Assembly: GCA_946403755.1 (NCBI GenBank)
Contig: CAMJBC010000002.1
Location: forward strand, 62,001-126,000
DNA: 64,000 nucleotides
Source of the DNA: an uncultured Mycoplasmatota bacterium
GTDB lineage: Bacteria; Bacillota_I; Bacilli_A; RF39; UBA660
Direction of reading: 5' to 3'
Shown: piece by piece, positions 25,239-25,820 of the stretch
Layout of the letters: each line of letters starts with the position of its first letter
Position numbering within the stretch: position 1 is the stretch's first letter
Program-made: the position numbers and the translations under genes
Notes under the pieces: generated by a model
What the model was told of the DNA's origin: nothing
Database searches by the model: none
Seen by the model: the letters and a program-made list of their open reading frames with translations, nothing else

Positions 25239-25254
25239 TGTTCCACGTGGAACA
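25239..25254. promoter_or_regulatory. parS: parS-like site 1
   Basis: TGTTCCACGTGGAACA perfect 16-bp palindrome. Confidence 0.9.
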
Positions 25255-25275
25255 TATATTTTAGATCAATAAAAT

Positions 25276-25289
25276 ATTTCCCGGGAAAT
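25276..25289. promoter_or_regulatory. Noc-binding site (NBS) 1
   Basis: ATTTCCCGGGAAAT within a 24-bp perfect palindrome (25271..25294). Confidence 0.85.
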
Positions 25290-25353
25290 ATTTTTAATGT
25301 TATAAGCCACTGGTTTTTCTATAAATACTTATGTCTAGTATTATTTTAATCAA

Positions 25354-25369
25354 TGTTCCACGTGGAACA
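25354..25369. promoter_or_regulatory. parS: parS-like site 2
   Basis: TGTTCCACGTGGAACA within AATCAATGTTCCACGTGGAACATTGATT. Confidence 0.9.
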
Positions 25370-25491
25370 TTGATTCATCAAATTAATATAATTTTGAATT
25401 ATTAAATCAGTTAATTTAATACATTATGATACTATTTTGATAAATTATATAGATTTTTAAACAATTTATATATACTGCTAATTAAAAAAAT

Positions 25492-25505
25492 ATTTTCCGG
25501 GAAAT
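25492..25505. promoter_or_regulatory. Noc-binding site (NBS) 2, one mismatch
   Basis: ATTTTCCGGGAAAT inside a 32-bp palindrome with one mismatched pair (25483..25514). Confidence 0.8.
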
Positions 25506-25557
25506 ATTTTTTTACCTTTAACAACTATTTTTTAAAAACTAATACTTTCATATTCAA

Positions 25558-25573
25558 TGTTCCACGTGGAACA
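25558..25573. promoter_or_regulatory. parS: parS-like site 3
   Basis: TGTTCCACGTGGAACA within the perfect 30-bp palindrome TATTCAATGTTCCACGTGGAACATTGAATA. Confidence 0.9.
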
Positions 25574-25698
25574 TTGAATACATTATACTATTAATTATTT
25601 AATTTATTTTAGCTAAATAATAACGTATTTTCTATCCTTTTATATATAAGATTTATATTATCTTTATAAAATTTATATATTTCAAATACTATAAAATT

Positions 25699-25712
25699 AT
25701 TTCCCGGGAAAT
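25699..25712. promoter_or_regulatory. Noc-binding site (NBS) 3
   Basis: ATTTCCCGGGAAAT in a 28-bp perfect palindrome (25692..25719). Confidence 0.85.
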
Positions 25713-25766
25713 AATTTTAATATAAATAATGCAATTATTAGTTATTAAATACATATTATATTTTAA

Positions 25767-25782
25767 TGTTCCACGTGGAACA
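25767..25782. promoter_or_regulatory. parS: parS-like site 4
   Basis: TGTTCCACGTGGAACA. Confidence 0.9.
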
Positions 25783-25806
25783 TTGGACTTATATTTGATC
25801 AATAAT

Positions 25807-25820
25807 ATTTCCCGGGAAAT
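25807..25820. promoter_or_regulatory. Noc-binding site (NBS) 4
   Basis: ATTTCCCGGGAAAT in AATAATATTTCCCGGGAAATATTATT. Confidence 0.85.

What the first reader, a model, noticed from the sequence alone, without database searches (positions are those of the whole stretch)
25239..25820. Strictly alternating array of four parS and four Noc-binding sites between the SRP RNA gene and gyrA
Seen directly: TGTTCCACGTGGAACA at 25239, 25354, 25558, 25767 and ATTTCCCGGGAAAT (one copy ATTTTCCGGGAAAT) at 25276, 25492, 25699, 25807, in the order P-N-P-N-P-N-P-N over ~580 bp with no ORF. Several are extended to 24-32-bp palindromes by AT flanks that are not needed for the core. Established: the first matches the bacterial parS palindrome bound by ParB, the second matches the Bacillus Noc-binding-site palindrome. 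Inference: an interdigitated loading platform for both CTP-dependent clamps next to oriC, where ParB and Noc could compete or cooperate in chromosome segregation and nucleoid occlusion. I am not aware of a described interleaved array of this kind.
Basis: partly seen in the sequence, partly recalled or inferred. Interest (0 to 1): 0.9.

Follow-up and report, generated by a model that had tools for sequence, protein, structure and literature searches.

The report
Shared ParB/Noc centromere beside gyrA
Next to the replication origin of an uncultured Bacilli lineage, landing sites for two related DNA-clamp proteins, ParB (chromosome segregation) and Noc (division control), are mixed in one small cluster, which suggests that chromosome pulling and Noc activity were merged into a single, previously undescribed kind of bacterial centromere.

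Summary
In detail: four exact parS (TGTTCCACGTGGAACA) and four Noc-binding sites (NBS) alternate in 0.58 kb between the SRP RNA gene and gyrA. Within 2 mismatches parS occurs nowhere else in the 1.19-Mb draft genome; within 1 mismatch neither does the NBS. The genome encodes a ParB with parS-type specificity residues and a Noc with NBS-type residues. All 15 same-genus genomes with an assembled gyrA have mixed parS/NBS arrays there, and so do scores of other family members, some as tandem P-N arrays of up to 25 sites. Other Bacilli families lack it (1 of 344). Strict alternation is not a rule: it is insignificant across the genus and elsewhere comes from tandem duplication of a P-N unit. Two further points support a real composite centromere. 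P-N spacings, unlike P-P spacings, are helically phased (about n+1/2 turns; 42 genera, P=0.0008). And this family's Noc has lost the N-terminal membrane helix, gained a long disordered linker, and has its sites confined to the origin region. Most likely: an origin centromere that co-loads ParB and Noc clamps, with Noc moved away from chromosome-wide nucleoid occlusion. Binding is predicted, not shown.

The parts
25239..25254 (.). parS 1 (TGTTCCACGTGGAACA), abuts the SRP RNA promoter
25276..25289 (.). NBS 1 (24-bp perfect palindrome AAAATATTTCCCGGGAAATATTTT)
25354..25369 (.). parS 2 (28-bp perfect palindrome)
25492..25505 (.). NBS 2, one mismatch (ATTTTCCGGGAAAT)
25558..25573 (.). parS 3 (30-bp perfect palindrome)
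25699..25712 (.). NBS 3 (28-bp perfect palindrome)
25767..25782 (.). parS 4
25807..25820 (.). NBS 4 (26-bp perfect palindrome)
25239..25820 (.). composite parS/NBS array; spacer DNA about 13% G+C (window 25%)
   Evidence: syntenic arrays in relatives
25107..25203 (-). bacterial small SRP RNA gene; promoter-like TTGCAA-16-TATAAT at 25226-25199
   Evidence: Rfam RF00169
25843..28428 (-). gyrA, flanks the array on the right
   Evidence: NCBIfam gyrA
24686..25096 (-). TadA-like deaminase gene, next gene on the left (below the family cut-off)
33345..34748 (-). dnaA, about 7.5 kb from the array: the origin region
42668..43780 (+). Noc orthologue: NBS-type residues Q-K-S-R, no N-terminal membrane helix, disordered linker about 206-311 with INPFQ motif, predicted C-terminal domain 312-365

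Best explanation
The array is the chromosome's centromere and loads two paralogous CTP-clamp proteins. ParB loads at parS and, through ParA and SMC-ScpAB, segregates and organises the origin. Noc loads at the interdigitated NBS and slides into the same few kilobases, so the origin carries a mixed ParB/Noc complex. P and N sites sit at half-integral helical turns from each other, which suggests that the two dimers must be placed in a set geometry when loaded side by side, either to contact or to avoid each other. In this family Noc has lost its membrane helix, gained a long linker, and keeps almost no sites away from the origin. So it probably acts as an origin-bound accessory of the partition complex, linking segregation to division or replication through a linker-bound partner, and not as a chromosome-wide membrane-tethered occlusion factor. 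Alternation is a by-product of tandem duplication and site turnover. Shown here: sites, synteny, conservation, spacing phase, residues and architecture. Inferred: binding, co-spreading and function.
For: Exclusive location of both motifs in own genome. ParB with R-M-K-G residues beside ParA, and Noc with Q-K-S-R residues; residue rule from PMC7383237. SMC-type ScpA and FtsZ present. All 15 same-genus genomes with gyrA have a mixed array there, holding 40 of 41 NBS (<=1 mismatch) of those genomes. Nearly all 119 loci of a named-genome scan map to the gyrA-tadA-dnaX interval. Strict P-N pairs: 108 of 390 family genomes, 58 of 152 genera, reversed-pattern control 0, against 1 of 344 genomes of other Bacilli families. 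Within arrays, cores vary less than flanks: mostly 0-9% against mostly 12-66% pairwise mismatch. P-N helical phasing: 113 spacer clusters P<0.001; 42 genera P=0.0008; second genus-labelled set P=0.006; P-P not significant. Noc architecture.
Against: About half of the family genomes whose gyrA 3' side was read have parS there without NBS among them, so the composite form is not essential to the whole family. Phasing weakens at distances >=42 bp (P=0.055), its data sets overlap in genomes, and it was found by looking at the distances. Loss of NBS elsewhere could simply follow genome reduction. No binding, ChIP or genetic data.
Confidence: 0.6

Rival explanations
1. Co-location without coupling. 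parS was ancestrally downstream of gyrA; in a shrinking genome Noc needs only a few origin sites, and these accumulated in the same gene-free stretch and were spread by tandem duplication. ParB and Noc load and act independently.
For: parS lies some 1-4 kb downstream of gyrA without NBS in several outgroup Bacilli (L284-L290). P-only arrays exist in the family. In other genera NBS also sit in dnaX, in rsmG upstream of noc, or elsewhere in the origin region.
Against: P-N but not P-P spacing is helically phased. Mixed arrays persist in 15 of 15 same-genus genomes although spacers and site order turn over.
Confidence: 0.25
2. The array is an origin-control element as in Staphylococcus aureus: Noc at the origin restrains replication initiation, and parS is merely nearby.
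For: NBS confined to the origin region; S. aureus Noc controls replication initiation and has a minor site next to dnaA (PMC5540599).
Against: Sites are about 7.5 kb from dnaA and on its gyrA side, and they interdigitate with parS; S. aureus has 41 Noc loci over half the chromosome.
Confidence: 0.1
3. Both motifs are read by one protein, so this is a simple ParB centromere with degenerate sites.
For: parS and NBS differ at few positions and promiscuous intermediates are known (PMC7383237).
Against: Two proteins with opposite specificity residues are present in own genome, and the two residue classes recur in the family; each motif stays sharp, without intermediate forms dominating.
Confidence: 0.03
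4. The palindromes are terminators, REP-like repeats or cruciform elements between gyrA and the SRP RNA gene.
For: Two parS score as terminator-like hairpins; parS flanks are symmetric site by site.
Against: Cores are the exact recognition sequences of two encoded proteins, occur only here in the genome, and the two terminator-like hits point away from gyrA transcription.
Confidence: 0.02

Closest known systems
Chromosomal ParABS (Bacillus subtilis ParB/Spo0J, Soj and parS)
   Same: 16-bp parS palindrome, origin-proximal, ParB with parS-type residues and a ParA-binding LGKGL motif, encoded next to ParA; SMC-type ScpA present.
   Different: Here parS is interdigitated with NBS in one dense cluster at a fixed position after gyrA, with helically phased P-N spacing.
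Bacillus/Staphylococcus Noc-NBS nucleoid occlusion system
   Same: Identical NBS core, Noc with Q-K-x-R residues, gene following rsmG, ParB-type CTP-motif residues (GERR, ENxQR) conserved.
   Different: NBS confined to the origin region instead of tens of scattered loci; no N-terminal membrane helix; 150-345 aa of linker plus C-terminal domain after the DNA-binding domain; TIGR04285 score below its cut-off.
Plasmid centromeres with iterated or two-box sites (e.g. P1 parS; own knowledge)
   Same: Clustered, partly tandem centromere sites with helical constraints.
   Different: There one ParB reads both box types; here two paralogous clamp proteins each have their own site.
Artificial ParB-parS plus Noc-NBS two-locus imaging system (PMC11109969)
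   Same: Uses the two orthogonal protein-site pairs together.
   Different: Engineered, used to track pairs of separate loci; not a natural mixed array.

Membership tests
parS / ParABS centromere | 16-bp parS palindrome | tested here: met
   four exact TGTTCCACGTGGAACA
parS / ParABS centromere | ParB with parS-type specificity residues (R173, G201) and ParA-binding motif LGKGL | tested here: met
   R-M-K-G; RLGKGLEQLF; motif definition from PMC12704722
parS / ParABS centromere | ParA partner and origin-proximal position | tested here: met
   ParA beside ParB; dnaA about 7.5 kb away
parS / ParABS centromere | ParB binds the sites in the cell | not testable with these tools
   needs ChIP or EMSA
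Noc-NBS system | NBS core ATTTCCCGGGAAAT | tested here: met
   three exact copies, one with a single mismatch
Noc-NBS system | Noc with Q173, K179 or K184, R201 | tested here: met
   Q-K-S-R; one lysine suffices per PMC7383237
Noc-NBS system | N-terminal membrane-targeting amphipathic helix | tested here: not met
   18 residues before PNRFQPR and no helix predicted, against 39 in B. subtilis; same in the family Nocs read
Noc-NBS system | NBS spread over the origin-proximal half or more of the chromosome | tested here: not met
   own genome 4 of 4 in one array; genus 40 of 41
Noc-NBS system | NCBIfam nucleoid_noc model above cut-off | tested here: not met
   274.8 bits against 315
Noc-NBS system | C-terminal dimerisation domain | tested here: inconclusive
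   alpha-beta-beta predicted at 312-365, moderate confidence

The most novel reading that the evidence does not exclude
A bipartite bacterial centromere in which two paralogous CTP clamps, ParB and Noc, are loaded at helically phased, interdigitated sites and form one mixed partition complex, with Noc turned from a membrane-bound occlusion factor into a dedicated centromere subunit.
Probability: 0.4. Interest if true: 0.9.

Novelty: new variant of a known kind. Interest (0 to 1): 0.78.

Why it matters
ParB and Noc are the textbook example of a duplicated DNA clamp that diverged to different sites and jobs. Here they appear to have been brought back together on one locus, with phased spacing, in a large uncultured gut-associated lineage. 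This gives a natural, compact template to test whether sliding CTP clamps of two kinds cooperate, collide or exclude each other, and what Noc does without its membrane helix.

Tried and rejected
Strict alternation as a conserved rule: rejected (genus P=0.09; regular alternation elsewhere is tandem duplication). Degenerate tandem origin of the window array: plausible from near-equal P-P (204, 209) and N-N (216, 207) steps, but Tandem Repeats Finder sees no repeat, so unproven. A changed NBS motif in parS-only arrays: no other recurrent GC-centred palindrome found. Phasing of P-P or N-N distances: none. A hidden upstream Noc start with a membrane helix: excluded by nearby in-frame stops in the Nocs read. 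Terminator or REP reading: see rivals. Literature: searches for mixed parS/NBS arrays found no description, within an open-access library only.

Full report
1. Observation. In the 1.19-Mb draft genome (13 contigs, 88.6% complete) the parS motif at up to 2 mismatches occurs only here, and the NBS at up to 1 mismatch occurs only here. The interval between the SRP RNA gene (25107-25203) and gyrA (25843-28428) holds no ORF of 80 aa or more. dnaA is about 7.5 kb away on the gyrA side.

2. The two proteins. PF02195 finds two ParB-type proteins in the genome. One, on contig C6 next to a ParA gene, has the parS-type residues R-M-K-G at Caulobacter positions 173/179/184/201 and the ParA-binding motif LGKGL. 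The other, in the window after rsmG (41900-42610), has Q-K-S-R, the NBS type. Jalal et al. 2020 (PMC7383237) showed that Q173 and R201 with a lysine at 179 or 184 give NBS preference. The nearest solved structures are Noc structures. So both halves of the array have a matching reader; that they bind is inference.

3. Conservation. In the same genus all 15 genomes with an assembled gyrA (own included) have a mixed array just after gyrA; the three without an array lack gyrA in the assembly. In those 15 genomes 40 of the 41 NBS (up to 1 mismatch) lie in the array. The pair occurs in 108 of 390 genomes of the family and 58 of 152 genera, with no hit for the reversed pattern, and in 1 of 344 genomes of other Bacilli families. 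Reading the gyrA 3' side of 30 other family members without regard to sites, parS was found in every one that could be read, and NBS among them in about half, some regions being truncated. In several other Bacilli families parS lies some 1-4 kb downstream of gyrA without NBS (L284-L290). So the parS position looks ancestral and the NBS were added.

4. Order and origin of alternation. Some relatives have long, regular P-N tandem arrays: 25 sites with period about 79 (L137), 22 with period about 125 (L109), 18 with period about 75 (L136). Irregular arrays such as NNNNPNPNN or NPPPP are common in the genus. Alternation is insignificant over the other genus arrays (P=0.09) and strong only where units are tandemly duplicated. 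Cores vary less than their flanks within arrays (mostly 0-9% against mostly 12-66% mismatch; two flank values fall lower and one core value is higher), as expected if binding is selected while spacers drift.

5. Spacing. Centre distances of adjacent P-N pairs peak near 26, 36, 47, 57, 68 and 79 bp. Periodicity near 10.5 survives collapsing similar spacers (187 and 113 clusters, P<0.001); at the loosest clustering, which merges unlike A/T-rich spacers and leaves 55, it is no longer significant (P=0.15). With one vote per genus (42 genera) a block-shift test gives P=0.0008, P=0.006 without distances under 32 bp and P=0.055 from 42 bp up. A second genus-labelled set gives P=0.006 for P-N, 0.21 for P-P and 0.90 for N-N. 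The phase is about half a turn. In the window five of seven steps fall at 3.5-6.0 modulo 10.5. The sets overlap in genomes and the effect was noticed before it was tested, so I rate it as good but not final evidence for geometric coupling.

6. Noc of this family. The Nocs read have 14-23 residues before the PNRFQPR motif where B. subtilis has 39, with an in-frame stop shortly upstream. The missing part is the membrane-targeting helix without which B. subtilis Noc is impaired in nucleoid occlusion (PMC8429893). The model shows no N-terminal helix, low confidence over most of 206-323 and a C-terminal alpha-beta-beta unit. After the DNA-binding domain come about 150-345 residues, mostly linker; in the genus the linker carries a conserved [IML]NPFQ motif. 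NBS outside the genus are few and mostly on contigs that carry gyrA, noc or parB, in six loci just upstream of noc. In B. subtilis and S. aureus NBS are many and widely spread (PMC5540599). Two features of classical Noc are therefore not met.

7. Mechanism. The best account is a composite centromere that co-loads ParB and Noc clamps at the origin, with ParB doing segregation through ParA and SMC (ScpA present), and Noc acting there through its linker on a partner, perhaps division (FtsZ present) or replication. The main rival is co-location without coupling; the spacing phase is the chief argument against it.

8. Known or new. Both site types and both proteins are known. A natural mixed array, its fixed place, the phased spacing and a membrane-helix-less, origin-confined Noc were not found described in the papers searched. 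I call it a new variant of a known kind.

Noticed in passing
window 42668-43780; L192-L238: Family Nocs carry a long, variable, probably disordered linker before the C-terminal domain; in the genus it holds a conserved [IML]NPFQ motif, a candidate partner-binding peptide.
   Followed up: partly
L005, L023-L039, L071-L189, L251-L283: parS flanks at +3 to +6 are symmetric site by site beyond the shared consensus (z 3-6), as if palindromes were being perfected, e.g. by quasipalindrome-type templated correction.
   Followed up: partly
L208, L213, L222, L235, L236, L210: NBS upstream of noc in six genera, four of them about 290 bp before the start of the Noc alignment, at the end of rsmG: possible autoregulation.
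   Followed up: partly
L075, L092, L094, L101, L140 and others: Single NBS inside the dnaX coding sequence in many family genomes.
   Followed up: no
L251-L254, L256, L262, L265, L273, L278: Many assemblies break within a few hundred bases of gyrA, probably because the arrays are repetitive.
   Followed up: no
window 25199-25254: The first parS lies directly upstream of the SRP RNA promoter-like sequence, so ParB loading could affect SRP RNA transcription.
   Followed up: no
window 57447-57927: OLE RNA (RF01071, 221.6 bits) on the minus strand; two PGK RNA motifs at 52443 and 53673.
   Followed up: no
window 35066-36526: 486-aa ORF divergent from dnaA without any Pfam or NCBIfam match.
   Followed up: no
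window 43869-45113: SPFH/Band 7 protein gene directly after noc, also in part of the genus but not found after noc in other genera.
   Followed up: partly
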